Of a DNA stretch of 20,843 nucleotides, positions 188 through 20,306 are shown piece after piece; within the stretch, counting starts at the first letter, position 1; every line of letters starts with the position of its first letter. Source of the DNA: a virus; the IMG/VR virus record IMGVR_UViG_3300044732_002913, positions 1 through 20,843 of that record; one strand, given 5' to 3'. Position numbers and translations under genes: made by a program. A model generated the notes under the pieces. It had not been told where the DNA came from. It worked only from the letters and a program-made list of their open reading frames with translations, and searched no databases.

Positions 188-325
188 TTATTTTTTGGAA
201 ATGTTCAAGAGGATAGAGATATCCTTGCTCACCTTGTCGGAGATCTTGGCGTGTTGCTCAAGATTGTTAGCGAAGCGGATGAGTTGGGCCTTCAGAGGAT
301 TCTGTTTAATTGCTTTCTTCTTCAT
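188..325 (-). CDS. small basic protein, 45 aa
   Basis: Encodes a 45-residue lysine-rich protein starting MKKKAIKQNPLKAQLIRFAN and ending NISKK before TAA. The N-terminal third is strongly basic and the rest is predicted amphipathic helix, so it may bind nucleic acid or a host protein, but nothing identifies a target. Start chosen at 325: a promoter-like pair (TTGCTT, 17 bases, TATCTT) ends six bases upstream and there is no Shine-Dalgarno sequence. Codon choice (CTC, ATC, AAG) resembles the other small minus-strand genes and differs from the AT-rich genes to the right. Probably an early or host-modifying small phage gene. Confidence 0.6.
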   Translation of the reverse strand: MKKKAIKQNPLKAQLIRFANNLEQHAKISDKVSKDISILLNISKK

Positions 326-331
326 GGTTAA

Positions 332-360
332 AAGATAGCACGGCCCTACTAGGAAAGCAA
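332..360 (-). promoter_or_regulatory. promoter-like pair ahead of the 45-aa gene
   Basis: Minus strand: TTGCTT (355-360), 17 bases, TATCTT (332-337), six bases, ATG at 325. Weaker than the promoter at 156-184 but with identical geometry. Confidence 0.45.
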
Positions 361-430
361 CAAGTTTTTTTCTTTTTGATAAACTTTTTTTTGATGATTT
401 ATCTTGACATTTACATTGTCCTACGTTTGT

Positions 431-468
431 CTTACAGTGTCATACCGGGCGGGGCCCGGCGCTGTAAG
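431..468. repeat. two-tier inverted repeat (hairpin) in a 165-base gap
   Basis: Outer arms CTTACAG (431-437) and CTGTAAG (462-468) enclose inner arms CCGGGC (445-450) and GCCCGG (454-459) with a GGG loop. Both stems are perfect; the 7- and 2-base links between them would form an asymmetric internal loop. No T-run follows on the minus strand, so it is not a classic intrinsic terminator. It lies in the only sizeable gap (326-490) of the small-gene run and could be a processing site, attenuator or operator. A TTGACA with a poor -10 at 404-432 on the plus strand is not convincing. Confidence 0.5.
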
Positions 469-490
469 TCGTTGATACTTAAGGGCTTGG

Positions 491-661
491 CTATCTGACT
501 AGCCTCACCCTATATTCGTTCTGACACTTGAGCTTTTCGTCCTGTCTTACAAGCTCATAGTATTGTAAGAGGGCCTGTGTCTCTGTGCTACCTACTAGCT
601 CGGCACGATACACCCACTTGCTATCACCTTTCCATCTGGATTCTACAATGATCTTCTTCAT
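491..661 (-). CDS. small unrecognised protein, 56 aa
   Basis: A 56-residue charged protein starting MKKIIVESRWKGDSKWVYRA, with a helical C-terminal half (LLQYYELVRQDEKLK) and an RVRLVR end. The frame is open further upstream, to 805, but I place the start at 661 because the upstream part overlaps, in another frame, a better gene (663-812) that stops one base before this ATG. That arrangement (TAA, C, ATG) is typical of translational coupling. No motif recognised. It may be a small regulatory or host-interacting phage protein. Confidence 0.55.
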   Translation of the reverse strand: MKKIIVESRWKGDSKWVYRAELVGSTETQALLQYYELVRQDEKLKCQNEYRVRLVR

Positions 662-662
662 G

Positions 663-812
663 TTATACAATGCTATGCTTTCTATTCCATCCTCTTTGCC
701 ATATAGCATACACACGCAAGCCATAAGCGGGATACTTCTTGATTGGTATACGATGCAAGGCGCACCATTGTGCAAACTCTTTCTTGCATTGCATTTGTGA
801 TACAATGTTCAT
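663..812 (-). CDS. small basic protein, 49 aa
   Basis: Encodes 49 residues starting MNIVSQMQCKKEFAQWCALH, rich in aromatic residues (three Trp, three Tyr or Phe near the C-terminal half) and basic residues, ending RKHSIV. The start ATG at 812 overlaps the stop of the gene upstream as ATGA, which fixes both frames. It stops one base before the next ATG at 661. Another frame is open across the same bases but gives a less protein-like product. No family recognised; the two cysteines (positions 9 and 17) do not form a known zinc pattern. Confidence 0.6.
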   Translation of the reverse strand: MNIVSQMQCKKEFAQWCALHRIPIKKYPAYGLRVYAIWQRGWNRKHSIV

Positions 813-955
813 AGTGATTGAATGAAGGTCTTTGCCTCAAGCAACCCCTGACTGATGTAGTAGTTACCCCACATCCTCAACGTGTTTCCCCTGCGTCCAT
901 GATAGGCCGAGCGATTGAAGAAGCGTTGCGATAGTTTGTAGATGATGGTGATCAT
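809..955 (-). CDS. small basic protein, 48 aa
   Basis: A 48-residue protein starting MITIIYKLSQRFFNRSAYHG with a basic, aromatic centre (RRGNTLRMWGNYY). It overlaps the next gene by four bases (ATGA at 809-812), a standard coupled-operon junction, and follows the 19-aa peptide gene after nine bases. No Shine-Dalgarno sequence is apparent. No domain recognised; composition suggests a soluble nucleic-acid- or protein-binding role, which is inference only. Confidence 0.55.
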   Translation of the reverse strand: MITIIYKLSQRFFNRSAYHGRRGNTLRMWGNYYISQGLLEAKTFIQSL

Positions 956-964
956 GCGCTTATT

Positions 965-1024
965 CTATGCTTTGTTGTGATAAAGTGCAACAGCAATCAC
1001 AAAAGAAATCAAGAGGAGTTCCAT
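965..1024 (-). CDS. 19-residue hydrophobic micropeptide
   Basis: MELLLISFVIAVALYHNKA followed by TAG. Residues 3-15 are hydrophobic, long enough for only a short membrane segment. The ATG shares its A with the stop of the gene upstream (TAATG at 1022-1026), which supports coupled translation, and GGA-type purines precede it inside the upstream gene. At 19 residues a chance reading frame is possible. The case rests on the junction geometry and the hydrophobic pattern. Confidence 0.4.
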   Translation of the reverse strand: MELLLISFVIAVALYHNKA

Positions 1025-1119
1025 TAGTGGTTACAGATCTGATCGGCGTAGTAGAAGATGCCAGCGTATGGAAGGATGGCGACGATAACAAGTAAGACAA
1101 GGAGAGCGATGCGTTTCAT
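1024..1119 (-). CDS. small single-pass membrane peptide, 31 aa
   Basis: A 31-residue peptide starting MKRIALLVLLVIVAILPYAG: two basic residues then a continuous hydrophobic helix to about residue 24, ending ADQICNH. This is a one-helix inner-membrane peptide, N-terminus in by the positive-inside rule, or an uncleaved signal. Its stop overlaps the next start as TAATG. A promoter-like pair at 1127-1155 ends seven bases before the ATG. Small membrane peptides in phage early regions can act in superinfection exclusion or lysis control; no specific role is supported here. Confidence 0.55.
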   Translation of the reverse strand: MKRIALLVLLVIVAILPYAGIFYYADQICNH

Positions 1120-1126
1120 GTGTGAC

Positions 1127-1155
1127 AGATTAGTGTGAGCAAGCCTCCATCGCAA
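1127..1155 (-). promoter_or_regulatory. weak promoter-like pair inside the small operon
   Basis: Minus strand: TTGCGA (1150-1155), 17 bases, TAATCT (1127-1132), seven bases, ATG at 1119. It overlaps the end of the upstream gene. Weak individually; listed because its geometry matches three other promoters in this region. Confidence 0.35.
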
Positions 1156-1243
1156 GGACAATCGTTCCAACCCCAAACAGGGCGAACATTCCGAGGGCGA
1201 GGAAGGAGAGGAGGATTATGGCTGATTCAATGTGGTGTTTCAT
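1130..1243 (-). CDS. small single-pass membrane peptide, 37 aa
   Basis: A 37-residue peptide starting MKHHIESAIILLSFLALGMF with one long hydrophobic helix (about residues 8-32) rich in Gly, Ala and Leu, ending EACSH. It is followed 10 bases later by the start of another small membrane peptide. The start at 1243 is the only ATG that includes the whole helix. No Shine-Dalgarno sequence and no clear -10 box are visible. It could be a holin-like or exclusion-type peptide, but nothing beyond the helix supports a function. Confidence 0.55.
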   Translation of the reverse strand: MKHHIESAIILLSFLALGMFALFGVGTIVLAMEACSH

Positions 1244-1284
1244 TTGTTCTAGTGTGTGTGTTTTGTTGTGTGTTGTAAAGATTT

Positions 1285-1395
1285 TTATTGATTCAAAGGA
1301 TCTTTTTTAAGGTTGCGCTTGGCGATCTCTGCCGCCTTGCGGTTCATTTCCATTACCTTCTTCATCAGAGTGTCGTTGTTCTTCTTATCGTTCAT
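1285..1395 (-). CDS. small basic helical protein, 36 aa; first gene of the minus-strand run
   Basis: A 36-residue lysine-rich protein starting MNDKKNNDTLMKKVMEMNRK and ending KKDPLNQ before TAA. The predicted structure is one long amphipathic helix. Its ending (NLKKDPLNQ) resembles the start of the 45-aa gene at 188-325 (KQNPLKAQ) only loosely. The start at 1395 is placed by a promoter-like pair (TTGCAT, 17 bases, TAGTAT) six bases upstream. It is the first gene of the leftward transcript and faces the repeat-protein genes across a 390-base gene-free stretch. Confidence 0.55.
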   Translation of the reverse strand: MNDKKNNDTLMKKVMEMNRKAAEIAKRNLKKDPLNQ

Positions 1396-1401
1396 GAGTA
1401 G

Positions 1402-1430
1402 ATACTACCCCCATCCCACACACAATGCAA
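1402..1430 (-). promoter_or_regulatory. leftward promoter of the small-gene run
   Basis: Minus strand: TTGCAT (1425-1430), 17 bases, TAGTAT (1402-1407), six bases (CTACTC), ATG at 1395. The expected start of transcription coincides with the start codon, so the first mRNA may be leaderless. Confidence 0.5.
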
Positions 1431-1650
1431 GAATTATTTTTATGTGATGATGTATTACAGTGTCCCCTCCCCTTTTTCCGAAAAATTGACCTTGTAAGAC
1501 CCGGTAAAACGCCGGTAGGGTCAAACTTCAATCTCCACTCAATAAAAAAACTACATTATTCAGAAATCTCGCCTAGAATTCAGAAATCGCCGCCGCCCCC
1601 AGCGACCGGGCGCTGCATTTTATATGCTGGCGCTTATCTATATAAACAAT

Positions 1651-1737
1651 TAAGAATAATAACTTAATTAATAAGAACAATAATAATAAGAATAAGAATA
1701 ACAATAATAAGGATAAGGATAAGAACAAATAATAAAT
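1651..1737. repeat. low-complexity TAA-rich tract
   Basis: About 87 bases built almost entirely of imperfect RATAAN units (AATAAG, GATAAG, AATAAC) in purine-rich strand orientation. It contains no gene. On the complement it reads as CTTATC/CTTATT units. It could be a flexible or easily melted segment, a slippage-prone microsatellite, or an untranslated leader of the repeat-protein operon. Confidence 0.75.
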
Positions 1738-1752
1738 ACCCGCATAGGGTTA

Positions 1753-1764
1753 TATGTGTAATTA
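1753..1764 (+). promoter_or_regulatory. candidate phage promoter motif, copy 1
   Basis: TATGTGTAATTA, identical over 12 bases to 7971-7982 and similar to 15214-15224. It lies 21 bases before the start codon of the repeat-protein gene at 1786, whose leader otherwise has only a weak purine run (AAGAAGAAAAAG). Confidence 0.45.
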
Positions 1765-1785
1765 ACCATAACAAGAAGAAAAAGT

Positions 1786-3066
1786 ATGGCAATTAATAAC
1801 TTTATAAACAAAGTGGAATTAGAGGCTCCTATATCCAGCCTGCCGGGAGACCTAAGGGTAAGTGGTAGGATATATTCAAGTGGTGAGCGCGTGGCGACCA
1901 TCGAGGATATGGGTTTAAACATTACCGTGAATGGTGGGTTTAGTTGCCCGGTTCCAGTTTTTATAGCCCCGGTTAATTATACACAAATTACTACTACTGG
2001 TAGCGCGCCAGCAATCGGCCCGGTGGAGACTAACGCCGCTCTATGGATAGAGAGTTTTGATTACAATCCAACAATAATTGGCGGCACGGACACAACCTTG
2101 ACTGGCGTAAGCTTTAATAACCTATTTGGTGTAAAGGGCGGGTTCAGTTTAGCTACGTGCAATTCTTTAACAGGCCTAAACCTTCCGCAGTTAAGCACTG
2201 TCATTGGTAATTTTTCCCCTAGCATATTGCCAGCGCTTACCGGTTTTTCGCTGCCGCAGTTAACAACCGTGGGCGGAGGGTTTAGTCCTAATATTATGTC
2301 CGCCCTCACCAGTCTTTCGGCGCCACAGTTAACAACAGTGGGCGGGAGTTTTGGTCCTGGTTCGATGGCCGCGCTTACCGGTTTTTCGTTTCCGCAGTTA
2401 ACAACAGTGGGCGGAGCGTTTAATCCTACCAACATGGCCGCACTTACCGGCTTTTCGATGCCCCAGCTAACAACGGTGGGCGGAACGTTTAATCCTAATA
2501 CTATGGCCGCGCTTACCGGTTTTTCGTTTCCGCAGTTAACAGTGGTGGGTGGACTTTTTCAGCCTAGCAATCTATCCTCTCTTACTAGTATCTCAATGCC
2601 ACAGCTGTTAACGGTGGGCACGAATTTACAACCAGCTACAATGGCCAGTCTAGCCAACTTAAACTTGCCACAATTGGCCCGTATAGGTGGTAGTATTGCT
2701 ATGGCTGGTACAAGCGTTCCAGCACTGAGTGGCTTTACTCTGCCGTCTATCACTGGTATTGCTTCTAATATTACTATAACCCCAACGGCCGGGAACTTTT
2801 CCGGACTATTTTTCGGCACTGGACTTAGAAACGCGGGTGGAAACGTTACGATTACCAGTCAAAGACTAATATTACCATCAGTAGAAAACATTCTTATCAG
2901 ATTGGCCGCTTTGGACGGAACCGCTGGCACTACCGTTTACGGCGCTGGTCGTACGGTTAACTTGAGTGGTGGAACCTCGGCTGGAGTTGCCGCATTAGGC
3001 CCTGCGGCTTCCGGTGCTAGAGCCACGCTTTTAGCCAGAACCGTGACCGTAACAATGAATCCATAA
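1786..3066 (+). CDS. repeat-containing surface or fibre protein, paralogue A (426 aa)
   Basis: Three parts. The N-terminus (about residues 1-45) is shared with the protein at 3294: an INKVE motif, then GDL, SSGER and ATIED. After a spacer of about 80 residues comes a solenoid of eight 23-residue repeats (about 127-310), core ALTGFSxPQLTTVGGxFxP. Last is a conserved C-terminal segment with SVENIL, RLAAL, GTTVYGAGR and a final TVTMNP. The Leu/Pro/Val-Gly-Gly spacing resembles leucine-rich or receptor-L-type right-handed solenoids, which often bind surface ligands. There is no signal peptide or membrane helix, as expected for a virion part. GC content and codon use are unlike the neighbouring AT-rich genes. 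Likely a host-binding fibre, an adhesin or a virion decoration; role inferred, fold moderately supported. Confidence 0.7.
   Translation: MAINNFINKVELEAPISSLPGDLRVSGRIYSSGERVATIEDMGLNITVNGGFSCPVPVFIAPVNYTQITTTGSAPAIGPVETNAALWIESFDYNPTIIGGTDTTLTGVSFNNLFGVKGGFSLATCNSLTGLNLPQLSTVIGNFSPSILPALTGFSLPQLTTVGGGFSPNIMSALTSLSAPQLTTVGGSFGPGSMAALTGFSFPQLTTVGGAFNPTNMAALTGFSMPQLTTVGGTFNPNTMAALTGFSFPQLTVVGGLFQPSNLSSLTSISMPQLLTVGTNLQPATMASLANLNLPQLARIGGSIAMAGTSVPALSGFTLPSITGIASNITITPTAGNFSGLFFGTGLRNAGGNVTITSQRLILPSVENILIRLAALDGTAGTTVYGAGRTVNLSGGTSAGVAALGPAASGARATLLARTVTVTMNP
2164..2715 (+). repeat. eight 69-base coding repeats, array A
   Basis: In-frame 23-codon units with core LTGFSxPQLTTVGGxFxP. The middle units are close copies; the outer ones have diverged (for example LSTVIGN, LARIGGS). 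Confidence 0.85.
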
Positions 3067-3074
3067 TAAATAAT

Positions 3075-3284
3075 ATGAGCCAATTAATAATTAATCAAAG
3101 CCCTGCGGAAAGTAGTTGGAGACTGGTTTATTGCAAGGATAAGCTTGAAGTTATCGCACTTTTTTATAGTGCCGGGGTTACGGCTACGGGGTATGAGTTA
3201 TTTATCTCACAATCCAAACAAGAGTGTTTGGATAAGATAGCTAGTCTTGGACTAGCATATACTGAGGAACACGCAGAAGAGTAA
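3075..3284 (+). CDS. small unrecognised protein between the two repeat genes, 69 aa
   Basis: A 69-residue mixed alpha/beta protein starting MSQLIINQSPAESSWRLVYC and ending in an acidic EEHAEE tail. It begins eight bases after the upstream repeat protein and ends nine bases before the downstream one, so the three genes look co-transcribed. Composition is normal for a small soluble domain (central GYELFISQSKQECLDKIASL). Position between two fibre-like genes suggests a partner, assembly chaperone or binding accessory, but no family is recognised. No Shine-Dalgarno sequence is seen; the leader is AATAAATAAT. Confidence 0.65.
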   Translation: MSQLIINQSPAESSWRLVYCKDKLEVIALFYSAGVTATGYELFISQSKQECLDKIASLGLAYTEEHAEE

Positions 3285-3293
3285 ACTAATAAA

Positions 3294-4763
3294 ATGCCAA
3301 TTGTAAATATTATAAATAAAGTAGAAGTTGGCCCGGCGATATCTGGCATTACTGGTGATTTAAGTATAACCGGGGCACTGCGCTCAAGCGGCGAGCGCGC
3401 TGCCACAATTGAAGATGCCGGATTAAGCTTAACAGTAGATGGTAGGTTTTTAGTTCCACCCCCTTTTTATCCGTCTGTGGTTAATTATGTGCAAATTATA
3501 TCTGGTAATACGGTTCTACCAGTTACCACAAATAACAATTTGTGGCTAGAAAACGTTAGCTATACAGTAACAGATACTACTTTAAGTGGAATAACATTTA
3601 ATAATTTATATGGAGTACGCAAGGATTTTACTTTTGCTAGTCAAAGCGCTCTAACTGGTTTAAACTTACCGCTTTTAACAATGGTGGGCGGAGCGTTTAG
3701 TCCTGGCACAATGGCCGCTCTAACCAGCTTTTCGCTACCACAGCTAACAACGGTGGGCGGATCGTTTAGTCCTAGCACGATGGGCGCGCTTACCAGTTTT
3801 TCGTTGCCGCAGTTAACAACAGTGGGTGGGAATTTTAATACTAGCACTATGGGCGCCCTCACCGGTTTTTCGGTGCCACAGTTAACAACGGTGGGTGGGA
3901 ATTTTAATACTAGTGTAATGTCCGCCCTCACCGGTTTTTCGGTGCCACAGCTAACAACGGTGGGTGGGAATTTTATTCCTAATATTATGAACGCCCTCAC
4001 CGGTTTTTCGGTGCCACAGTTAACAACGGTGGGCGGGGGTTTTAGTCCTAATATTATGAACGCCCTCACCGGTTTTTCGGTGCCACAGTTAACAACGGTG
4101 GGCGCATCGTTTAATCCTAGTATTATGAACGCCCTCACCGGTTTTTCGGTGCCACAGTTAACAACGGTGGGCGGATCGTTTAGTCCTAGCACGATGGGCG
4201 CGCTTACCAGTTTTTCGGTGCCACAGTTAACAACGGTGGGCGGGAATTTTAATCCTACCGCGATGGCCGCGCTTACTGGTATGTCATTACCACAATTAAG
4301 GACAGTGGGTGGTATTGCTATTGATGGCGCCTCTATTAGGTCCATCGAACTACCACAGTTAACAACCGTGGGCTCGTTTATCCGCTTGGGTGGCCTTCCT
4401 ATTGTAAATCCAACGCCAAGACTTACTGGCCTTAGTTTACCAGCCATTACTGGTATTGGTGGTAATATTGATATATTCTCAACTGGTCTTAATTTTTCCG
4501 GACTGTTTTTTGGCACTGGCTTGAGGAATGTCAATGGAAACCTTACAGTTACCGGACAGGCCCTATCCATCCCCTCTGTAGAAAATATACTAGTAAGATT
4601 AGCGGCCTTAAATGGAACCAGTGGCACTACGGTCTACGGTGCTGGTCGATCTGTTGCTTTACAAGGTGGAACCTCAGCTGGTAGTGGCGTTTTAACTCCT
4701 GCTGCGTCTGCGGCTAGAGCGGTGCTTACTGGGAGATCCGTAGTTGTAACGTTAAATCCTTAA
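3294..4763 (+). CDS. repeat-containing surface or fibre protein, paralogue B (489 aa)
   Basis: Same architecture as the protein at 1786. The shared N-terminal segment has INKVE, GDLSITG, SSGER and ATIED. A spacer ends in LSGITFNNLYGVR, matching LTGVSFNNLFGVK in the paralogue. The solenoid has ten to eleven 23-residue repeats (about residues 118-360), core ALTGFSVPQLTTVGG. The C-terminus carries the matching LFFGTGLRN, SVENIL, RLAAL, GTTVYGAGR and VVTLNP. The middle repeats are almost identical in DNA, pointing to recent duplication or conversion. It differs from paralogue A mainly in repeat number and the spacer, which may be the ligand-specific part. Both proteins may be alternative binding modules of one virion structure. 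A long open frame also exists antisense to the repeats but only mirrors them. Confidence 0.7.
   Translation: MPIVNIINKVEVGPAISGITGDLSITGALRSSGERAATIEDAGLSLTVDGRFLVPPPFYPSVVNYVQIISGNTVLPVTTNNNLWLENVSYTVTDTTLSGITFNNLYGVRKDFTFASQSALTGLNLPLLTMVGGAFSPGTMAALTSFSLPQLTTVGGSFSPSTMGALTSFSLPQLTTVGGNFNTSTMGALTGFSVPQLTTVGGNFNTSVMSALTGFSVPQLTTVGGNFIPNIMNALTGFSVPQLTTVGGGFSPNIMNALTGFSVPQLTTVGASFNPSIMNALTGFSVPQLTTVGGSFSPSTMGALTSFSVPQLTTVGGNFNPTAMAALTGMSLPQLRTVGGIAIDGASIRSIELPQLTTVGSFIRLGGLPIVNPTPRLTGLSLPAITGIGGNIDIFSTGLNFSGLFFGTGLRNVNGNLTVTGQALSIPSVENILVRLAALNGTSGTTVYGAGRSVALQGGTSAGSGVLTPAASAARAVLTGRSVVVTLNP
3645..4378 (+). repeat. ten or more 69-base coding repeats, array B
   Basis: In-frame 23-codon units. 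Several central units share the junction ATTATGAACGCCCTCACCGG and downstream sequence with almost no change. The last unit is degenerate (RSIELPQLTTVGSF). Units are also close copies of those at 2164-2715. Confidence 0.85.
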
Positions 4764-4775
4764 GATTTAACTATA

Positions 4776-4961
4776 CTATACAGTTTCCAACTGTACATTA
4801 TTTTTATAAACCACTGGCTTGACCCAAAATATGTCAGTGCCACTGTATATCTTATACTGGCTTCTGCTATTATTTATTTCAATAATCTTACCATAACGCC
4901 AATTTTTAATACTACGCTCTAAAAATTCGATATTATCATTTAATTTAAATTCTTTTTTCAT
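4776..4961 (-). CDS. small SH3-like hypothetical protein, 61 aa
   Basis: A 61-residue protein starting MKKEFKLNDNIEFLERSIKN with a pattern of short beta-strands (WRYGKIIEINN, QYKIYSGTDIFWVKPVVY) like a small SH3/KOW-type barrel; this resemblance is only by eye. It converges with the repeat gene, its stop lying 12 bases after that gene's stop, and shares a 31-base divergent start region with the zinc-knuckle gene at 4993. AT-rich codon use matches the phage genes to the right. Function unknown. Confidence 0.6.
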   Translation of the reverse strand: MKKEFKLNDNIEFLERSIKNWRYGKIIEINNSRSQYKIYSGTDIFWVKPVVYKNNVQLETV

Positions 4962-4992
4962 AATATAATTGGAATTAGTTGTATAATATTAT
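4962..4992. promoter_or_regulatory. 31-base divergent promoter region
   Basis: The whole space between two opposed start codons. On the plus strand TGTATAAT lies five bases before the ATG at 4993. On the minus strand ATTATATT abuts the ATG at 4961. No Shine-Dalgarno sequence serves either gene. Both transcripts must begin very close to their start codons. Confidence 0.5.
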
Positions 4993-5253
4993 ATGAAGCA
5001 GTGTGGTCTTTGTAAAAAGGAATTAGAGTTGGGCTTGTTCTCTATAAATAAACGTGCGAAAGACGGCTTGCATGCTTGGTGCAAAAATTGTTGTAGAAAG
5101 GCCGAACGTGAGCGTTATAAAATAGTAAGAGAGCAAAAAATAAAGGAAGTGCGCGAATGGCAAGAGAAAAATTTGCAGAAAGTCAAGGAATACAAGAGGA
5201 ATTGGCGGGCCGAGCAGAAAAACCTGCCCGAACCCGGCCAATCTAACCAGTAA
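4993..5253 (+). CDS. zinc-knuckle protein, endonuclease VII-like N-terminus (86 aa)
   Basis: An 86-residue protein with a CxxC pair at C4/C7 and a second at C30/C33 (plus C34), in the context CGLCKKEL...DGLHAWCKNCC. This spacing and the phrase around it resemble the zinc-binding N-terminal part of phage HNH/recombination endonuclease VII relatives. The rest (about 35-80) is a highly charged single helix, and the nuclease catalytic part is missing. It may therefore be a stand-alone zinc-binding nucleic-acid protein or a remnant. It ends two bases before the end of the convergent heat-shock gene. Confidence 0.65.
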   Translation: MKQCGLCKKELELGLFSINKRAKDGLHAWCKNCCRKAERERYKIVREQKIKEVREWQEKNLQKVKEYKRNWRAEQKNLPEPGQSNQ

Positions 5254-5255
5254 TA

Positions 5256-5702
5256 TTAAACTTCCACGTTAATCTTTCTTGGTTTCGCCACTTCACTCCT
5301 TGTGGCACTAACATAGAGAACGCCATGATCTAGTTTTGCGGATACTGTTTGTGCATCCAAGAACTCAGGGAAGCTTTCAGAAGTATAGAACTTCAAGCTG
5401 TCCTGTTCCGCGCTAATGTGCAACACGCCATTGTCTATTGACACGTTAATATTTTCGCGCTTGAATCTTGGTAATTCGATATCAAAACCAAACTTATCCT
5501 GATTGGTTTCGTCCTGCTTCCACTTATTCGCCAATTTAGAACTGAACGATGGGCTTGTCACCGCATCGAAATCATCCCAAATACCAGACCACTTTGTTGA
5601 CCATATATCAAGTATCTTAAACGGATCGTAAGCAGTGTTAATACTTCCGATTGTATAATTGGGTAAGTTTACTATTTTTTTAGGTACTAATGTAATATTC
5701 AT
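5256..5702 (-). CDS. small heat-shock protein (Hsp20, alpha-crystallin family), 148 aa
   Basis: An ATP-independent holdase-type chaperone. A variable, Trp-rich N-terminus (1-65) is followed by the alpha-crystallin domain (about 68-134) with IELPRFKRENINVSI, GVLHISAE and the hallmark G-x-L near HGVLYVSA (126-133). It ends in the C-terminal I-x-V motif (INVEV, 144-148) used for oligomer contacts. Length is normal for the family. Hsp20 proteins are known from T4-like cyanophages and other large phages, where they may protect host or virion proteins. The gene is monocistronic on the minus strand, tail to tail with the zinc-knuckle gene. Its leader has CTGTAAC 15 bases before the ATG and no Shine-Dalgarno sequence. 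Confidence 0.85.
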   Translation of the reverse strand: MNITLVPKKIVNLPNYTIGSINTAYDPFKILDIWSTKWSGIWDDFDAVTSPSFSSKLANKWKQDETNQDKFGFDIELPRFKRENINVSIDNGVLHISAEQDSLKFYTSESFPEFLDAQTVSAKLDHGVLYVSATRSEVAKPRKINVEV

Positions 5703-5779
5703 ATATTTGTATTGTTATTGTTACAGTATTGAGACAAAACTTTTGTTGGAATGTTCAATAAATATTTGTAATATATTAT

Positions 5780-6457
5780 GTGAAAGAGTATGAGTATCTA
5801 ATTGTTTCGGATTTGCACCTCACCAGCTTGGTTTGTCAGCACGAGAAATTCGAAAAGGTAATTAAAAGCGTCCCGGCCAAAAACATAGTATTAAACGGCG
5901 ACGTAATAGATGTTAATCATACAAAAAAATTGAGCAAAAAAGATTGGCACTTAATGTCAAGCTTGCGTAAGCTAACGAAAAACAGTAACTGTTATTGGAA
6001 CGCCGGGAATCATGATGAGGACGTTTCAAAAACTCTTTCAGAATTTATAGGCTATGATCACTCAAGAGAGGTTCGCTGTACAATTGATGATAATAAAATC
6101 ATTGTAACTCATGGTGACCAATTTGACAGTTTTATTGGCGACCATCCTGTACTGACAACAGTGGCCGCTGGAATATATTACTGGCTACAAGCAATAGACC
6201 CAAAAGAACAGCGCGTTCCAAGGTTTTTTAAAAAACGTAGTAAAAATTGGGTGCAAGCCGCAAGCAGAGTTAGGCAAAATGCGGTCAAGTGGGCAAAGGC
6301 CCAAAATTATAATTCAATTATTTGTTCTCATGTACATCACAGCGAATTTTCAACTGTTGAAAATATCAATTATGCTAATACTGGCTGTTTTACTTATGCA
6401 GAATGTTCTTATGTGACAATAGATAAATTTGGTAAGATTGTCGTACATAAAGTGTAA
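5780..6457 (+). CDS. calcineurin-like metallophosphoesterase, 225 aa
   Basis: Carries the metal-binding motifs of the family in order: D11-x-H13 (SDLHL), GDVID (40-44), GNHDE (76-80), THGD (110-113) and SHVHH (183-187). The last replaces the usual GHTH. This fits a two-metal phosphoesterase of the LpxH/MPP type acting on nucleotides, nucleic acids or other phosphoesters; the substrate is not readable. The start is GTG at 5780, since the nearby ATGs go out of frame at once. TGTAAT lies seven bases before it and there is no Shine-Dalgarno sequence. Monocistronic in appearance, between the heat-shock and PhoH genes. Phage enzymes of this class are implicated in nucleotide or DNA-end metabolism; here that is inference. 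Confidence 0.85.
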   Translation: MKEYEYLIVSDLHLTSLVCQHEKFEKVIKSVPAKNIVLNGDVIDVNHTKKLSKKDWHLMSSLRKLTKNSNCYWNAGNHDEDVSKTLSEFIGYDHSREVRCTIDDNKIIVTHGDQFDSFIGDHPVLTTVAAGIYYWLQAIDPKEQRVPRFFKKRSKNWVQAASRVRQNAVKWAKAQNYNSIICSHVHHSEFSTVENINYANTGCFTYAECSYVTIDKFGKIVVHKV

Positions 6458-6545
6458 TATATACCGTAGTGAATATTTCGGCCTCCCACAGTTCGGGAAT
6501 AGATTTTAAAAGTGGCCATAACTGTCTCCAGACCTCTCCCCCAGA

Positions 6546-6571
6546 AGTTAAATTCATGTGTTAATTTAACT
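6546..6571. repeat. perfect 9-bp inverted repeat before the PhoH gene
   Basis: AGTTAAATT, 8-base loop (CATGTGTT), AATTTAACT, then TATTTAATTTTTT and the ATG at 6584. It could be an operator, or an AT-rich terminator for the phosphoesterase gene because a T-rich run follows. The loop resembles the TATGTGTAA motif with one extra base. Confidence 0.6.
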
Positions 6572-6583
6572 ATTTAATTTTTT

Positions 6584-7324
6584 ATGAAAAACAAAACAGA
6601 TAAACCCAAAAAGGACACTTCTCCATATGTTGACAAAAAAAGAACAAAAGTCAGCATTGATTTAAGTTTAAGAGAATTACCTTGGACGGAAAAACAAAAC
6701 AAGTTTTTTGAATTAGCAAATAATAAAAATACCAAAGTCATTATAATCAAAGGTGTTGCTGGCACATCAAAAACATTATTAGCAACATACATGGCGCTAA
6801 AGAAAATAAAAGAAAAGAAGATATCTGAAATTTATTACAGCCGAGTACCAGTAGAAAGCTCTGTTCACGGCATAGGATACATAAAGGGAACATCCGAAGA
6901 AAAAATGTCCCCATATGTACAACCATTAACCGATAAGTTAAATGAACTATTACCAGAACCACAAGTAAGGGCACTTATGAGTGATAATCGTGTTATTGGT
7001 TTACCATTAGGATTCCTACGTGGATTAAACATCTCAAACGCCGCGTTCATTATGGACGAGGCGCAAAATTGTCGCGTGGAAGACTTCCTATTAGTAATGA
7101 GCCGTATGGCCAATTTCTCAAACTTGTACATCCTCGGAGATGATCAACAATCAGATATTAAAAACAGTGGTTTTAATCGTGTTTATAATCTGTTTGATAA
7201 TGACACCGCAAAAGAACATGGTATTCATACTTTCCAATTCGGAAAGGAAGATATCGTGAGATCCGAGATCTTGTCTTACGTCATCGAAAGCTTCGAGAGC
7301 ATAAGACAGACGAATAAAAACTAA
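6584..7324 (+). CDS. PhoH-family ATPase, 246 aa
   Basis: A P-loop NTPase of the PhoH group. Walker A is GVAGTSKT (57-64) and Walker B is IMDEAQN (156-162); between them is the family region with YYSRVPVE and GYIKGTSEEKMSPY (about 84-111). PhoH2-type relatives combine RNA helicase and RNase activity, and phoH is a common marker gene in marine and freshwater phages. No PIN nuclease domain is present, so this is the ATPase-only form. The leader is AT-rich without a Shine-Dalgarno sequence. The stop overlaps the stop of the opposite metalloprotein gene by three to four bases. Confidence 0.9.
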   Translation: MKNKTDKPKKDTSPYVDKKRTKVSIDLSLRELPWTEKQNKFFELANNKNTKVIIIKGVAGTSKTLLATYMALKKIKEKKISEIYYSRVPVESSVHGIGYIKGTSEEKMSPYVQPLTDKLNELLPEPQVRALMSDNRVIGLPLGFLRGLNISNAAFIMDEAQNCRVEDFLLVMSRMANFSNLYILGDDQQSDIKNSGFNRVYNLFDNDTAKEHGIHTFQFGKEDIVRSEILSYVIESFESIRQTNKN

Positions 7325-7917
7325 TTCTGGTAGAATTGAATAATAGATTCAGGTATTTCTAAATAGTTCAAATGCGATTTTAATAGAACATTTGGGCACT
7401 GATTAGCTATTGTTTTGTACCTAGTGCGAGGCATGGGCCAAATGTTATTTTTATATAAATAAGCATATTTATACAGAATCGCGTTAGCATACTGAGCATA
7501 CTCCTTATGACAGAATAGATTATTATCCTTTATTATTTTAATAGCTCGGCGTTCGCAATCTCTTTCAAGAGCCAAAAGAATTAGAATTTCTTCTTTGAAC
7601 TTTTTGGGCTTACTAATTATATCATCAAATGCAAAGTTCTGATTTTCAAACTTTTGCCAAATTTTGCTATTAGTAGTCCATTGTAAGAAATGGCAATACT
7701 CATGTATTAATACTCCAAACCATTCTTTTTCTGTTTTGTCGCCAGTTGCTACCTTGATTACAGGGTCGCCTTCATTATTAAAGTAAAATATCCCATCGCA
7801 TTTGCTAACGCCAGCACAATACTTACCTTTTTGTAAAAAAATCTTACCATCATTTTCAGACAAGTCGCTTTCTATTGTCTTGTAAATGTCCGAATTAATT
7901 AAGGAAGACATTAACAT
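7321..7917 (-). CDS. HExxH zinc metalloprotein (putative peptidase), 198 aa
   Basis: Carries IHEYCHFLQW with the zinc-binding, catalytic HExxH at 72-76. A helix with candidate third ligands E118 or E122 (LERDCERRA) lies about 45 residues on, as in gluzincin-type metallopeptidases. No signal peptide or membrane segment, so it acts in the cytoplasm or in the virion. I start at ATG 7917, since a TTG at 7929 would read through the TGTGTAAT motif that probably drives the gene. The last third is basic and aromatic. It could cleave a host or virion protein, or be a non-peptidase zinc protein. I know of no named phage family that fits. Its end is interlocked with the PhoH stop. Confidence 0.7.
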   Translation of the reverse strand: MLMSSLINSDIYKTIESDLSENDGKIFLQKGKYCAGVSKCDGIFYFNNEGDPVIKVATGDKTEKEWFGVLIHEYCHFLQWTTNSKIWQKFENQNFAFDDIISKPKKFKEEILILLALERDCERRAIKIIKDNNLFCHKEYAQYANAILYKYAYLYKNNIWPMPRTRYKTIANQCPNVLLKSHLNYLEIPESIIQFYQN

Positions 7918-7970
7918 AATATTACACAAGCGACAGTGTAAAAACGTTAGTTAAAGAGATTTTAGAATTT

Positions 7971-7982
7971 TATGTGTAATTA
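7971..7982 (+). promoter_or_regulatory. candidate phage promoter motif, copy 2
   Basis: TATGTGTAATTA, identical to 1753-1764, 15 bases before the ATG at 7998. It stands at the head of the long rightward gene series. Confidence 0.5.
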
Positions 7983-7997
7983 TTTAATAATAAGTGT

Positions 7998-8534
7998 ATG
8001 AAATATTTTTGTCCGTCATGCGGAAAACCTACCGTATATAATTTAAACATTCCAAAGTTTTGTTCGGAATGCGGTGTAAGTTTTGCGCCTAATAAAACAG
8101 CAGTCGCTTCTAATTTAAAAAAACTTTTTCCATCGCAAACTTTTGCACCAGCTGAAGCCAAGCCCCTGAGTGCTGAACAGAATGAGCGCATAAACGCCAC
8201 TATTAAAAAAATGGCGCCAAAATATGAGGCTAGTATATCATTTGAAAATACTACAACCAGTCAACCAACCGAAGATCAGGATATTGAATATATTGATAGT
8301 GAAGATTTTGATGCAAGCAAGTTTAAATCAATTAAGCCGCAATTTAAAGTAGAGGCAAGAAGAAGTGATGGAGTGTCTTTTGAAAATTTGGTAACAAATG
8401 GTTATGTTAATAACTATAAGTCATCAGACTCGTCCTTGGATAATAATATTATTACAAACAATAGATCGGCTGATGATATATTGAATGAATTCCAAAGAGA
8501 AGCTGGAACTTCGCGTGGCGCTAGCCAAGACTAG
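7998..8534 (+). CDS. zinc-ribbon protein of unknown function, 178 aa
   Basis: The N-terminus is a compact zinc ribbon: C5-x2-C8 (FCPSCGK) and C22-x2-C25 (FCSECGV). The remainder is low in hydrophobic residues, acidic and Asn/Ser-rich, and probably largely disordered, with a short helix at the end (DDILNEFQREAG). Such an arrangement suits a transcription-associated or adaptor protein. It is the first gene after the TATGTGTAATTA motif and lies 21 bases upstream of the sigma factor, so a role with it in late transcription is plausible but unproven. Confidence 0.7.
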   Translation: MKYFCPSCGKPTVYNLNIPKFCSECGVSFAPNKTAVASNLKKLFPSQTFAPAEAKPLSAEQNERINATIKKMAPKYEASISFENTTTSQPTEDQDIEYIDSEDFDASKFKSIKPQFKVEARRSDGVSFENLVTNGYVNNYKSSDSSLDNNIITNNRSADDILNEFQREAGTSRGASQD

Positions 8535-8555
8535 TAAAATATAAAATTATATATT

Positions 8556-9248
8556 ATGTCTACAACGCCTTCTTTCGAGGATAGTATTGCAATTATTGAT
8601 GAAGAAATTAATAAACGTAAGGTTCGCTGGCATTTAACTGCCATTGCTTGGATGGATTTTCAAGATGTCGCGCAAAGACTCAGGATTCATATTTATAAAA
8701 AATGGAACAAATGGGATACGGTTAGGCCATTGAGGCCGTGGTTAAATCAGGTAATCAACCATCAGATTACCAATATGTTAAGAAATCATTATTCAAATTT
8801 TTCACGCCCATGTTTAAAGTGCCCATATAACACCGGAGATCACGGCTGCTCAGTATATACCACACAGAATAATTCTTGTTTATCCTATTCCAAATGGGAG
8901 AAAACAAAAAAGAATGCTTATGATATAAAGTTCCCAGTAAGCATACATACTCCAAATACACAGAATCCAGAGACTAATCTAGAATCTCTCATAGAAAGTA
9001 AGGAGTCTTATTTAGATATAGAAAATATTCTACCAGCATTCAATGATATGATGAAAAAGAATTTATCTAATATAGAATGGAAAGTATATGATTTAGTATT
9101 CTTACAGAACTTAGAAGATTCGGATGTTGCTAAAAAAATGGGATATAAACTAAGTTATAAAGATGGCAGACCTGCTTATAGACAGATAAGCAAAATTAAA
9201 TCTAAAATTTTACAAAAAGCAAGAGAACTTGTTAAGGAGTTGTTATGA
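8556..9248 (+). CDS. phage sigma factor with a zinc-finger-like linker, 230 aa
   Basis: Resembles the sigma-70/ECF class. Region 2 lies at about 20-80, with DFQDVAQRLRIHIYKKW and RPWLNQVINHQITNMLRNHY matching the core-binding and -10-reading helices. Region 4 lies at about 165-228, with IEWKVYDLVF, LEDSDVAKKMGY and RQISKIKSKILQKARE as a helix-turn-helix. Between them lies an unusual four-cysteine block, C86-x2-C89-x8-C98-x9-C108, likely binding zinc. Phage sigma factors redirect host polymerase to middle or late genes, and location just before packaging and head genes fits that. No Shine-Dalgarno sequence; leader TATAAAATTATATATT. Its stop overlaps the next start as ATGA. Confidence 0.8.
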   Translation: MSTTPSFEDSIAIIDEEINKRKVRWHLTAIAWMDFQDVAQRLRIHIYKKWNKWDTVRPLRPWLNQVINHQITNMLRNHYSNFSRPCLKCPYNTGDHGCSVYTTQNNSCLSYSKWEKTKKNAYDIKFPVSIHTPNTQNPETNLESLIESKESYLDIENILPAFNDMMKKNLSNIEWKVYDLVFLQNLEDSDVAKKMGYKLSYKDGRPAYRQISKIKSKILQKARELVKELL

Positions 9249-10363
9249 GTACAGAAATAGAAGACGCCGATCTTTCTTCAGAACAGAAACAAAGAATAAA
9301 AGATTTGGTTGCAAAAAATCCAGACGCAACGATCACTGAAATAACTGCCTATGCGTATGAAGATGATTCTATAGATAGCAGGAGCAAAGAGGGTCGTAAC
9401 GTAAAGAAATTCTTACTTGATAATAAAATTAATTACAAGAATAAGTCGGTTACACAAAGAGAGAGGGTTTCTCTAACTGAAGAGCAGAAAGAGTTTATAA
9501 AAAATAATTATAAAAATCAGCATTATGTGGAGCTGGCAAAAACATTGTTCGCTAATGACAAATTAACGCATGTAACTCTTGAATGCAGGGAGGTTAATTC
9601 TTATATACAGTCTTTGCAAAAAGATGATCCAGAGCATCTGGAAACTATTAATTACAATCCAGAAAGAGACGCGCAAACTCCAGTTGGCTCTTACTTTCCT
9701 CCCAGAAGACAAGATCAGGTTTTATTTAGAATAAACAAGTACTTGAATCTCGGCTGGTCATTAGATGCCATGAAGGCATCCCAGTTAAAACAGGTTGATA
9801 CCTTGCAAAGATATCTAAATACTTTTAGTTTTTGCTACCAAATTAATACATATAAAGTATCTGGAGACAGACAACTATTTGAAGATGCTTTTATAAGATA
9901 TACGTATGATAAAGAAGACTTAAGTCAGGAAGAGCTTGACCAATTTATCGTACTATGCACAGAAGCGGTTACTGCGGCAAGTGTTTTACAGCAAGTTGAA
10001 GAATTGCGTGAAATGTTGAGAAATAGTAGTGGCGATGGAGAAGGCAGGAATATAAAAATGCAACTTAATGATGCTATCAATAATTTACATACCGAGTATA
10101 ATCAATGTAGATCCCGTCAGCAAAAATTGTATAAATCACTTGTAGACGATAGGTCTAAACGCCTACAGCAACGCAAAGATGAGAATGCTAGCATTTTAAA
10201 CTTGGTTCAGGCGTGGAAAGACGAGGAGAGAAGAAAGGGCATTCTGACCTTGGCCACAGCACAGAAAGAAAACTTAAAGCAGGAGGCCGCTAGATTGTCA
10301 TCAATGGACGAATTAAAAGCAGTAATTCGTGGTATAGATATAAATGACATGGTAAACGGCTAA
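9245..10363 (+). CDS. unrecognised helical protein upstream of the terminase, 372 aa
   Basis: Acidic and predominantly helical. Residues 1-75 contain what may be two short helix-turn-helix-like segments (SSEQKQRIKDLVAKNPDATI; LTEEQKEFIKNNYKNQHYVE). Residues 150-240 are a mixed region and 245-365 a long charged coiled coil. It is translated from an ATGA overlap with the sigma factor and has a true Shine-Dalgarno sequence (AAGGAG at 9234-9239, five bases before ATG). DNA-binding N-terminus plus coiled coil, two genes before the large terminase subunit, would suit a small terminase subunit or a packaging/transcription cofactor. This is inference; no family is recognised. Confidence 0.7.
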   Translation: MSTEIEDADLSSEQKQRIKDLVAKNPDATITEITAYAYEDDSIDSRSKEGRNVKKFLLDNKINYKNKSVTQRERVSLTEEQKEFIKNNYKNQHYVELAKTLFANDKLTHVTLECREVNSYIQSLQKDDPEHLETINYNPERDAQTPVGSYFPPRRQDQVLFRINKYLNLGWSLDAMKASQLKQVDTLQRYLNTFSFCYQINTYKVSGDRQLFEDAFIRYTYDKEDLSQEELDQFIVLCTEAVTAASVLQQVEELREMLRNSSGDGEGRNIKMQLNDAINNLHTEYNQCRSRQQKLYKSLVDDRSKRLQQRKDENASILNLVQAWKDEERRKGILTLATAQKENLKQEAARLSSMDELKAVIRGIDINDMVNG

Positions 10364-10370
10364 ATTTATT

Positions 10371-11309
10371 ATGAGTAAGTATTCTAAATATTTGCAATGT
10401 AAAGTTTGCAATAAAAATTTTGAAAATGCAGATGGTATTCTTAAGCACGTAAAAGTACACAAGATTACTGCCAAAAAATACTTCATGCAGTATTATCCAA
10501 AATCTGATTTACTAAACGCGGAGCTGATAGAATATAAATCATTCGAGCAGTACTATTTAAATGACTTTATAAATAAAAGAAACTTAAAAAAATGGTTAGG
10601 TGAATTAGATTCCACTTCTGCTTGTAACTATTTAGTATCTAAATTATCAGATTACTGTACACTCAAGGGATTAACCTCCATTCCAAGTCAGTCCCAAATA
10701 AAAACAATAGCGTGTTTACCGTCAATAGAAATATTCAATAGTTTTTGTGGAAAGTCTTTTTGCGAATTGGCGGAATCATTAAAATTAAAATGCAATTTTA
10801 ATTATAAAAGAAAACATACTCCAAAAGATATAAATAACATCGGATTTAATCAAATGGTTATAGACACTAGAGAGCAAAAGCCGTTGAAATTTGATAACTT
10901 GAATATCATTTCTTCTAAATTAGAATGTGGTGATTATGCTGTAACTAAAGATGCCAATTTAGTTATCGAAAGAAAGAGTATGGGTGACTTTTTCTCTACA
11001 TTGAGTGGTGGTATAGAAAGGTTTGAAAGAGAAATTGAAAGGGCAGAAAAACTTGGAATATATATAGTTGTCATGGTCGAGTCACCGATAAATACAGTGC
11101 TGTTTTGTAAAAGAACTTTTGGTGCCTGTAGTGGAGATTATATAATGCATCACATGCGAAAAATATGTAGACAGTTTAGCAATGTTCAATTTGTTTTTTG
11201 TGATAGTAAATTAGATTTGACAAAAAAAGTATTATATGTCTTAGATATGAAAGACGAAGCAAAGACAACCGATCTGCAATATCTATTTGATAACGAGGTA
11301 AAATTATGA
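10371..11309 (+). CDS. C2H2 zinc finger-ERCC4 nuclease fusion, 312 aa
   Basis: A classic C2H2 finger opens the protein: C10-x2-C13-x12-H26-x3-H30. A middle region (35-155) is basic and helical. The C-terminal half is an ERCC4/XPF/Mus81-type nuclease domain with D165-T-R167-E168, G187-D188-Y189 and I199-E200-R201-K202 followed by D206, the acidic and ERKxxxD metal site of that family. These enzymes cut branched or flapped DNA; the finger may target it to DNA. It overlaps the terminase start by four bases, so it is probably made with it and could resolve branches during packaging, as T4 endonuclease VII does. No XPF-type helicase or HhH2 domain is seen. Confidence 0.8.
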   Translation: MSKYSKYLQCKVCNKNFENADGILKHVKVHKITAKKYFMQYYPKSDLLNAELIEYKSFEQYYLNDFINKRNLKKWLGELDSTSACNYLVSKLSDYCTLKGLTSIPSQSQIKTIACLPSIEIFNSFCGKSFCELAESLKLKCNFNYKRKHTPKDINNIGFNQMVIDTREQKPLKFDNLNIISSKLECGDYAVTKDANLVIERKSMGDFFSTLSGGIERFEREIERAEKLGIYIVVMVESPINTVLFCKRTFGACSGDYIMHHMRKICRQFSNVQFVFCDSKLDLTKKVLYVLDMKDEAKTTDLQYLFDNEVKL

Positions 11310-19196: not shown

Positions 19197-20306
19197 ATGA
19201 AAATTCAATTCGAAAAAAATCCAGAACAGGTTGAACTAATCAAGGCTTTAGCCTCTGATAACAAGTCAACAGCACTAGAGGCACAAGAGGCCTTTGCTGC
19301 TTTCATCAGTCAGGTAGTACAGCAGGTGCTTCTACAGACTGGCACAGCTACCAGTATTTATCGTGATATCGAGTTTGATGAAGACGATTCTCCATCAATT
19401 CCTTTAGATCTATACTATGGAGCACAAGAGGGAACAATCAGTGTATGGAGCCAGACAGTTGGCGGTGGTCTACCAACAAACTTCGTACAGGGAACTCAAG
19501 AGATGAAGATCAGTACCTATCGTTTAGATAGTGCTATCTCCATGGAAAAGCGTTATGTTCGCAGAGCACGTCTAGACGTTGTTGCTGCTGGACTAGAGCG
19601 TATGGCCAATGAGTTGCTTGTTAAGCAGGAGCGTAATGCATGGGCAGTCGTTCTTAAGGCTCTAGCCGAGGCTCAAACACAGTCTCAGAAACACGTTATT
19701 CGTGCCGGAACAGCTGGAACTTATCAGCTAGACGACATGAACAAGCTATGGACACTAGTTCGTAGATTAAACGCCGCTTACACAGGTGGAACTCCTTCCG
19801 CGCTACAGAGCCGTGGATTAACTGACATCTTCGTAAGTCCAGAAATCAAGGAGCAGATCCGTGGTTTTGCTTACAATCCAATGAACACACGTGCTGGTTC
19901 AGTCGGAACAACTCAGAGTAACACTTCCCTAGCTCTTCCTGATAGTATCCGTGAGGAAATCTATCGTAGTGCAGGAACAAGTGAGATCTTTGGAGTAACT
20001 ATCCATGAGCTATTAGAACTAGGTGTTGGACGTAAGTACAACGATCTATTCTCAGCTTTCGCTGGTGGTACATCATACGGTGGAAGTAGCTTCAACGGAT
20101 CCACAAGTCAGATCCTTATTGGTGTGGATTCCACACGTAACGCCCTACTACGCCCCGTCTCTATCCAGAGCGAGACACGTGGACAGGTTAAGGTTCTTCC
20201 TGATGATCAGTTCCTAGCCCGTAGTCAGAAGGTCGGCTTCTACAGTTATGTTGAAGAGGGCCGTGTAGTAACTGACGCTCGTGCAGTCTGTGGTTTAATC
20301 GTATAA
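19197..20306 (+). CDS. major capsid protein (HK97-fold type), 369 aa
   Basis: Shell subunit. Support: position after protease-scaffold and decoration genes, length, strong codon bias unlike the flanking AT-rich genes, and a typical layout with a helical N-terminus (1-50), YRDIEFDEDDSPSIPLDLYY, then a helix-rich domain with RYVRRARLDVVAAGLERMAN and LLVKQERNAWAVVLKAL (about 122-165, resembling the spine helix), and a beta-rich C-terminal domain. The leader is AATATTAATATTTTAAAAAC without a Shine-Dalgarno sequence. A strong terminator follows 24 bases after the stop. Confidence 0.85.
   Translation: MKIQFEKNPEQVELIKALASDNKSTALEAQEAFAAFISQVVQQVLLQTGTATSIYRDIEFDEDDSPSIPLDLYYGAQEGTISVWSQTVGGGLPTNFVQGTQEMKISTYRLDSAISMEKRYVRRARLDVVAAGLERMANELLVKQERNAWAVVLKALAEAQTQSQKHVIRAGTAGTYQLDDMNKLWTLVRRLNAAYTGGTPSALQSRGLTDIFVSPEIKEQIRGFAYNPMNTRAGSVGTTQSNTSLALPDSIREEIYRSAGTSEIFGVTIHELLELGVGRKYNDLFSAFAGGTSYGGSSFNGSTSQILIGVDSTRNALLRPVSIQSETRGQVKVLPDDQFLARSQKVGFYSYVEEGRVVTDARAVCGLIV

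What the first reader, a model, noticed from the sequence alone, without database searches (positions are those of the whole stretch)
1786..4763. Twin solenoid proteins with shared ends and expandable 23-residue repeats
Two neighbouring genes share N-terminal and C-terminal modules but differ in repeat number (about 8 against 10-11) and in the spacer before the repeats. The core LTGFSxPQLTTVGG resembles receptor-L/leucine-rich solenoids rather than usual phage fibre repeats. Having two versions side by side suggests a dual-specificity or switchable binding system.
Basis: partly seen in the sequence, partly recalled or inferred. Interest (0 to 1): 0.68.

Follow-up and report, generated by a model that had tools for sequence, protein, structure and literature searches.

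The report
Twin phage fibre proteins with solenoid
Two neighbouring genes of an uncultured tailed phage encode look-alike fibre proteins that probably dock on the virus particle by a shared N-terminal tag and grip the host cell with an expandable leucine-rich-repeat-like solenoid, and relatives carry the same kind of solenoid gene, always paired with one small partner gene, at a locus where adhesins are swapped.

Summary
ORF A (1786-3066) and ORF B (3294-4763) are 62% identical paralogues with 8 and 10 consecutive 23-residue repeats (plus degenerate ones). Three lines of evidence point to virion fibre or receptor-binding proteins. (1) Their first ~12 residues (MxIxNIIxKxE) are a tag found, in 5,843 ORFs, only at or near the N-termini of A, B and fibre-like genes of relatives, several with BppL_N baseplate repeats. 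(2) mid69 belongs to a family found directly downstream of a solenoid gene in 31 of 31 distinct cases: 27 LRR proteins, 3 PATR beta-helices and ORF A. (3) The locus content changes completely between phages whose capsid and terminase proteins are about 94% identical. The predicted fold of B is an LRR-like solenoid, nearest to Bacteroides BspA-type LRRs, but the repeat fails the TpLRR consensus and the Pfam LRR_5 and Recep_L models. Amino-acid changes concentrate at six positions per repeat. Two binding specificities are plausible but untested. A genetic switch is not supported: no inverted repeats, no reverse transcriptase in relatives, old divergence. Receptor, host and virion presence are unknown. 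I rate it a new variant of a known kind.

The parts
1786..3066 (+). ORF A, 426 aa: N-terminal tag, spacer, 8 regular 23-residue repeats, C-terminal cap
1786..1866 (+). N-terminal module of A; tag MAINNFINKVE shared with fibre genes of relatives
2164..2715 (+). 8 repeats of 23 residues in A
2719..3063 (+). C-terminal 115-residue module of A; distant similarity to the cap of phage LRR proteins
3075..3284 (+). mid69, small partner protein; family found once per relative genome, directly after a solenoid gene
   Evidence: model
3294..4763 (+). ORF B, 489 aa, paralogue of A with 10 regular repeats
   Evidence: AlphaFold model
3294..3374 (+). N-terminal module of B; tag MPIVNIINKVE
3648..4331 (+). 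10 repeats of 23 residues in B (last one 21)
4332..4487 (+). two irregular repeats at the C-terminal edge of the B solenoid
4416..4760 (+). C-terminal 115-residue module of B (overlaps the last irregular repeat)
4776..4961 (-). m61, conserved flanking gene; in relatives it separates two adhesin slots
4993..5253 (+). endonuclease VII/HNH-like 86-aa gene, conserved right flank of the adhesin locus

Best explanation
A and B are paralogous virion fibre (receptor-binding) proteins of a large tailed phage. The N-terminal tag docks them to the same particle site used by other fibre proteins of this phage group (inferred from sharing of the tag). The 23-residue repeats fold into an LRR-like solenoid (predicted). 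It presents rows of variable residues on a fixed frame, which is the probable ligand face (inferred). The C-terminal module caps the solenoid (inferred). mid69 is made with it as a dedicated small partner, most likely an assembly chaperone or cap of the kind often encoded directly after tail-fibre genes (inferred from gene order alone). Repeat number probably grows and shrinks by recombination between near-identical units (inferred from unit identity), and whole solenoid genes are exchanged at this locus between related phages (shown by comparison). Two retained copies probably give two binding specificities or two reaches (inferred, untested).
For: Tag: pattern [MV]x?IxN[IFVL][IVL]xKxE occurs in 732,811 residues of ORFs only at or near the N-termini of A, B and six other distinct fibre-like sequences (shuffle expectation 0.1). 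Several of these proteins carry BppL_N (lower baseplate) repeats, and five of six listed tagged genes lie 235-1672 nt before an LRR-cap gene. Partner: 31 of 31 distinct mid69-family genes with visible upstream sequence follow a solenoid gene: 27 LRR with a common C-terminal cap, 3 PATR beta-helix, and A. The family occurs once in each of 13 of 21 records searched. Elsewhere the cassette sits beside tail-fibre, tail-tip, tape-measure or endolysin genes, and in L113 the LRR is fused to a Laminin_G_3 lectin-type domain. Fold: B repeats pLDDT mostly 73-96, short strands in each turn; nearest solved folds are BspA-type LRRs, 4fs7 Z 15.5, rmsd 4.4 over 351 residues; the viral library returns an uncharacterised Caudovirales protein at E 1e-8. 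Variation: pN/pS about 1.24 at positions 7, 16, 18, 20, 21, 23 against 0.14 elsewhere. Locus turnover: L009/L010 share about 94% of TerL and MCP with the window but have unrelated adhesins here.
Against: No virion proteomics, receptor or host is known. The model of B is based on two sequences; the N-terminal 82 and last 70 residues have pLDDT below 50. Foldseek finds no solved structure at E below 0.001, and repeats easily give middling Z-scores. Similarity of the C-terminal module to the LRR cap is weak: hhalign P 4e-5 but HMMER E 0.08, below threshold. The variable positions were picked after looking at the data, so the pN/pS contrast is descriptive. The window itself holds no identifiable tail gene near A and B. 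The tagged relatives come from a few related phages and are not independent.
Confidence: 0.72

Rival explanations
1. A and B are decoration fibres of the head or neck that hold the phage loosely to surfaces or sugars (not host-specific receptor-binding proteins). They would work by many weak contacts along the solenoid.
For: They lie on the side of the packaging and head genes (TerL, portal, MCP in the same window). A tagged relative has a weak Phage_cement_2 match. Neighbouring fibres in relatives carry GLEYA, PA14 or LamG carbohydrate-type domains.
Against: Tagged relatives mostly match baseplate BppL_N repeats, and cassettes in other phages sit beside tail fibre and tape-measure genes.
Confidence: 0.17
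2. A and B are intracellular or released phage proteins (for example host-takeover or immunity-binding LRR proteins), and mid69 is a regulator or antitoxin-like partner.
For: LRR proteins often bind proteins inside cells (general knowledge); genes near A and B in the window are mostly non-structural (HNH, Hsp20, phosphoesterase, PhoH).
Against: The N-terminal tag is shared with fibre proteins, relatives have PATR autotransporter-type beta-helices in place of LRR proteins before the partner gene, and cassettes elsewhere sit in tail and lysis clusters.
Confidence: 0.08
3. The pair is a switch: recombination between A and B or inside the arrays changes which adhesin is made, as in phase-variable fibres or diversity-generating retroelements.
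For: Direct repeats of up to 93% DNA identity between units make array expansion and contraction likely.
Against: No inverted repeat of 18 nt or more in 1400-5300, no reverse transcriptase in 14 relatives, C-terminal modules too diverged (dS about 1.06), identical A-B stretch in the second contig.
Confidence: 0.03

Closest known systems
LRR proteins of related uncultured large phages with the cap VNaILaaFV...GtnsaPTGQGlTDkaTLisRGWTVTTN
   Same: Solenoid of ~23-residue repeats, a C-terminal cap with the same order of features, mid69-family partner directly downstream, same genomic neighbourhood in the closest relatives
   Different: Their repeats are of the LxxFxCxxNxLtGsIPsL type and match LRR_4; A/B repeats do not. 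A/B carry the docking tag on the same chain, while relatives have it on a separate fibre gene upstream
TpLRR/BspA-class LRR surface proteins (PMC2946307; solved 4fs7, 4fd0, 4h09, 4gt6, 6mlx)
   Same: 23-residue period, L..L.L..L..VG..F frame, best fold match
   Different: Conserved segment one residue shorter than the ten of TpLRR; no AF and no C/N position; no LRR_5 match
Tail fibre plus downstream chaperone modules (T4 gp38, Mu Tfa, Alteromonas phages V22 gp26-gp27 and A5 gp8-gp9; PMC7289586, PMC10579305)
   Same: Adhesin gene followed directly by a dedicated partner; module exchanged between unrelated phages
   Different: mid69 is ~70 aa (beta-beta-beta-alpha in a modest model) against 195-240 aa in V22/A5; no homology shown; chaperone activity not shown

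Membership tests
TpLRR (BspA) class of leucine-rich repeats | Repeat length 23-25 residues in tandem (PMC2946307) | tested here: met
   Consecutive anchors spaced exactly 23 residues: 7 of 7 spacings in A, 9 of 11 in B
TpLRR (BspA) class of leucine-rich repeats | Consensus LxxLxLxxxLxxIgxxAFxx(C/N)xx with a ten-residue conserved segment (PMC2946307) | tested here: not met
   0 of 18 units fit the strict pattern; 14 of 18 fit a version one residue shorter and without the A
TpLRR (BspA) class of leucine-rich repeats | Match to Pfam LRR_5 (PF13306) | tested here: not met
   No match at E up to 10; control genomes match
TpLRR (BspA) class of leucine-rich repeats | LRR arc/solenoid fold | tested here: inconclusive
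   Predicted fold nearest to 4fs7 (Z 15.5) and other LRRs, but Foldseek E only 0.03 at best and shallow alignment
Receptor L domain (PF01030) | Match to the Pfam model | tested here: not met
   No match at E up to 10; controls match
Phage solenoid-plus-partner cassette seen in relatives | mid69-family gene directly downstream of the solenoid gene | tested here: met
   mid69 scores E 2.7e-23 to the family HMM (which was built with it), 8 nt after A; an independent phmmer of mid69 alone finds L082 at 1.2e-5
Phage solenoid-plus-partner cassette seen in relatives | LRR C-terminal cap | tested here: inconclusive
   hhalign P 4e-5 over 77 columns; HMMER E 0.08
Tailed-phage fibre / receptor-binding protein | N-terminal module shared with other fibre proteins of the group | tested here: met
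   (sequence sharing shown; docking itself inferred)
Tailed-phage fibre / receptor-binding protein | Located among tail or fibre genes in relatives | tested here: met
Tailed-phage fibre / receptor-binding protein | Present in virions and binds the host surface | not testable with these tools
   needs proteomics and binding assays
Diversity-generating retroelement target | Reverse transcriptase in the genome | tested here: not met
   none in 14 relative records; controls match; the window's own full genome is not held

The most novel reading that the evidence does not exclude
A widespread, so far unnamed phage adhesin system: one small beta-beta-beta-alpha partner protein that serves solenoids of different folds (LRR, PATR beta-helix, and this 23-residue LRR-like type), so that receptor-binding solenoids can be swapped like cartridges while the partner and dock stay; the window is the case in which dock and solenoid are fused and the solenoid duplicated.
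Probability: 0.4. Interest if true: 0.7.

Novelty: new variant of a known kind. Interest (0 to 1): 0.52.

Why it matters
Receptor-binding proteins set phage host range, and most of those of uncultured phages cannot be recognised. A ~70-aa partner gene that marks the solenoid adhesin next to it, with an N-terminal dock on neighbouring fibres, gives a practical handle for finding adhesins in environmental phage genomes. It also raises a testable question: how one small partner copes with solenoids of different folds. The 23-residue array with a fixed frame and variable stripe is a natural counterpart of designed repeat binders.

Tried and rejected
Pfam and PHROGs scans of A and B: only a spurious TRAF3_RING match to the repeats. 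PDB sequence search: nothing meaningful. Rfam on the window and four relatives: none. Viral-contig scans with A/B, their C-terminal module and the repeats: only the near-identical contig. Genome-contig scan with the repeats: only a Bacteroidetes secreted protein with a similar LRR-like stretch (38%), judged repeat similarity, not orthology. Of the phage-collection hits, OR338540 is a BspA-like LRR stretch in a gut sequence; the others were weak and not followed. A/B profile over 21 relative records: no match. Switching by inversion or by a retroelement: rejected. Literature searches showed no paper on LRR phage adhesins with such a partner among the rows listed, but only open-licence papers are held.

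Full report
What is there. The window is a 20.8-kb fragment of a large tailed phage from IMG/VR: TerL at 11306, portal at 13245, endolysin at 16244 and, by gene order and size, the probable major capsid protein at 19197-20306 (no family match). At its left side, ORF A (1786-3066), a 69-codon gene mid69 (3075-3284) and ORF B (3294-4763) follow each other with gaps of 8 and 9 nt, then m61 on the minus strand, an endonuclease-VII-like gene, Hsp20 and a phosphoesterase. A and B are 62% identical. A has eight and B ten consecutive 23-residue units, followed by degenerate ones. Tandem Repeats Finder scores of 366 to 774 rule out chance.

How the repeats vary. Of the 23 positions, L2, P8 and L10 are invariant in all 18 units and most others nearly so. 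Change concentrates at positions 7, 16, 18, 20, 21 and 23. Among the 13 regular units the pN/pS ratio is 1.24 at these positions and 0.14 elsewhere; the positions were chosen after inspection, so this is a description, not a test for selection. Neighbouring B units are up to 93% identical in DNA, a sign of recent expansion, while the C-terminal modules of A and B differ by dS about 1.06 and dN about 0.27: an old duplication, both copies kept.

Fold. The AlphaFold model of B (alignment of two sequences) is confident only in the repeats (pLDDT mostly 73-96) and shows short strands at unit positions near 4-6, 12-13 and 17-21 in the clearest turns. Residues 1-82 and 420-489 are below 50. Foldseek finds no solved structure with E below 0.001, but the list is dominated by LRR proteins. 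The VIA-align second look puts the Bacteroides LRR protein 4fs7 first (Z 15.5, rmsd 4.4 over 351 residues), with 4fd0, 4h09, 4gt6 and the Treponema TpLRR 6mlx in the list. In the viral library three uncharacterised Caudovirales proteins score E 1e-8 to 3e-4, so the kind exists elsewhere, unnamed. The repeat does not satisfy the published TpLRR consensus (PMC2946307): 0 of 18 units, its conserved segment being one residue shorter. The LRR_5 and Recep_L models do not match. I therefore call it LRR-like and do not file it in a class.

The locus in relatives. A TerL search returned 80 related loci. In the closest relatives the same flanks hold two adhesin slots on either side of m61: beta-repeat proteins in the first; LRR or PATR beta-helix proteins followed by a ~70-aa gene in the second. 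The window has A-mid69-B in the first slot and only 31 nt in the second. L009 and L010, which share 94% of TerL and 95% of MCP with the window, have no relative of A or B there but a PATR protein (643 aa in L009) and, in L009, an unrelated 274-aa repeat protein. This is the turnover expected of host-recognition genes (compare metaviromic islands, PMC3909814).

The partner gene. mid69 alone finds a relative in L082 at E 1.2e-5. An HMM built from it and five relatives collects one family, present exactly once in 13 of 21 records searched, up to 178 kb. A further viral scan gave 28 loci. In all 31 distinct cases with upstream sequence the gene before it is a solenoid: 27 LRR proteins with a common C-terminal cap, three PATR-type proteins (two scanned, L010 by its near identity to L009) and ORF A. 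L117 has two LRR-plus-partner cassettes in tandem, their LRR proteins 56% identical, which parallels the twin arrangement here. The C-terminal module of A/B aligns over most of its length with the LRR cap (hhalign P 4e-5; HMMER E 0.08): suggestive, not proven. The AlphaFold model of mid69 (pLDDT 74) is three strands and a helix; its best structural neighbour is an uncharacterised phage protein of the same size.

The dock. The first residues of A (MAINNFINKVE) and B (MPIVNIINKVE) recur in relatives as MAIRNIIQKAE, MAIRNIIRKAE, MPIKNIIEKAE and MIKNIINKIE. In 5,843 ORFs the pattern occurs only at or near N-termini, in eight distinct sequences, against 0.1 expected after shuffling. The tagged relatives are fibre-like; L078 and L033 match the BppL_N baseplate domain above its cut-off and L043 below it. 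Five of six lie 235 to 1672 nt before an LRR-cap gene. So in relatives dock and solenoid are neighbouring genes, in the window they are one chain. That the tag binds the particle is inferred from the general design of phage fibres (for T5 pb1, an anchoring domain at residues 1-40: PMC12750041).

Neighbourhood elsewhere. In other phages the cassette lies beside a BppL_N/Phage_tail_C protein (L107), an endolysin and tail-like protein (L112), near a tape-measure protein (L118), beside a tail-fibre protein (L119) or a terminase (L115); in L113 the LRR is fused to a Laminin_G_3 domain.

Mechanism and limits. Shown: paralogy, repeat structure, tag sharing, partner association, locus turnover. Predicted: solenoid fold. 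Inferred: docking, ligand face, capping, chaperone role of mid69, two specificities. A switch is unlikely: no inverted repeats, no reverse transcriptase in 14 relatives, and an identical A-B stretch in the second contig covering it. The host and receptor are unknown. Downstream chaperones of tail fibres (T4 gp38, Mu Tfa, V22 gp27; PMC7289586, PMC10579305) are the nearest precedent for mid69 by gene order only.

Verdict. A real and coherent finding: twin LRR-like fibre proteins with a family-wide small partner, a new variant of phage receptor-binding modules. The most novel reading, one partner serving interchangeable solenoid folds, remains open.

Noticed in passing
window 358-1573: Stretch upstream of ORF A with no long gene but DNA blocks conserved in L014, L019, L080 and L082 (68-94% identity), including 1463-1573 just before the first adhesin slot; no Rfam match. 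It may hold short minus-strand genes or a regulatory element.
   Followed up: partly
L117:1-3701: Two LRR-plus-partner cassettes in tandem (LRR proteins 56% identical), a second case of twin solenoid adhesins.
   Followed up: partly
L113:911-3457: Protein of about 849 codons that fuses a Laminin_G_3 lectin-type domain to the LRR and cap.
   Followed up: no
L016, L019, L025, L112-L120: Phage LRR repeats of the form LxxFxCxxNxLTGSIPSL, which read like the plant-specific LRR consensus (from memory, not tested).
   Followed up: no
L009:262-1083: 274-aa protein of GDATFN..SYNGGTV repeats in the first adhesin slot, weak Bactofilin match below cut-off.
   Followed up: no
L049:1116-4382: 1089-aa fibre with GLEYA, PA14 and BppL_N domains above cut-off and a weak CBM_5_12 match, next to an LRR cassette.
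   Followed up: no
window 287-1000 against L001: L001 is identical to the window from about 1000 to 12500 but differs at 30 positions to the left of that, so the left end is a separate, faster-changing segment.
   Followed up: partly
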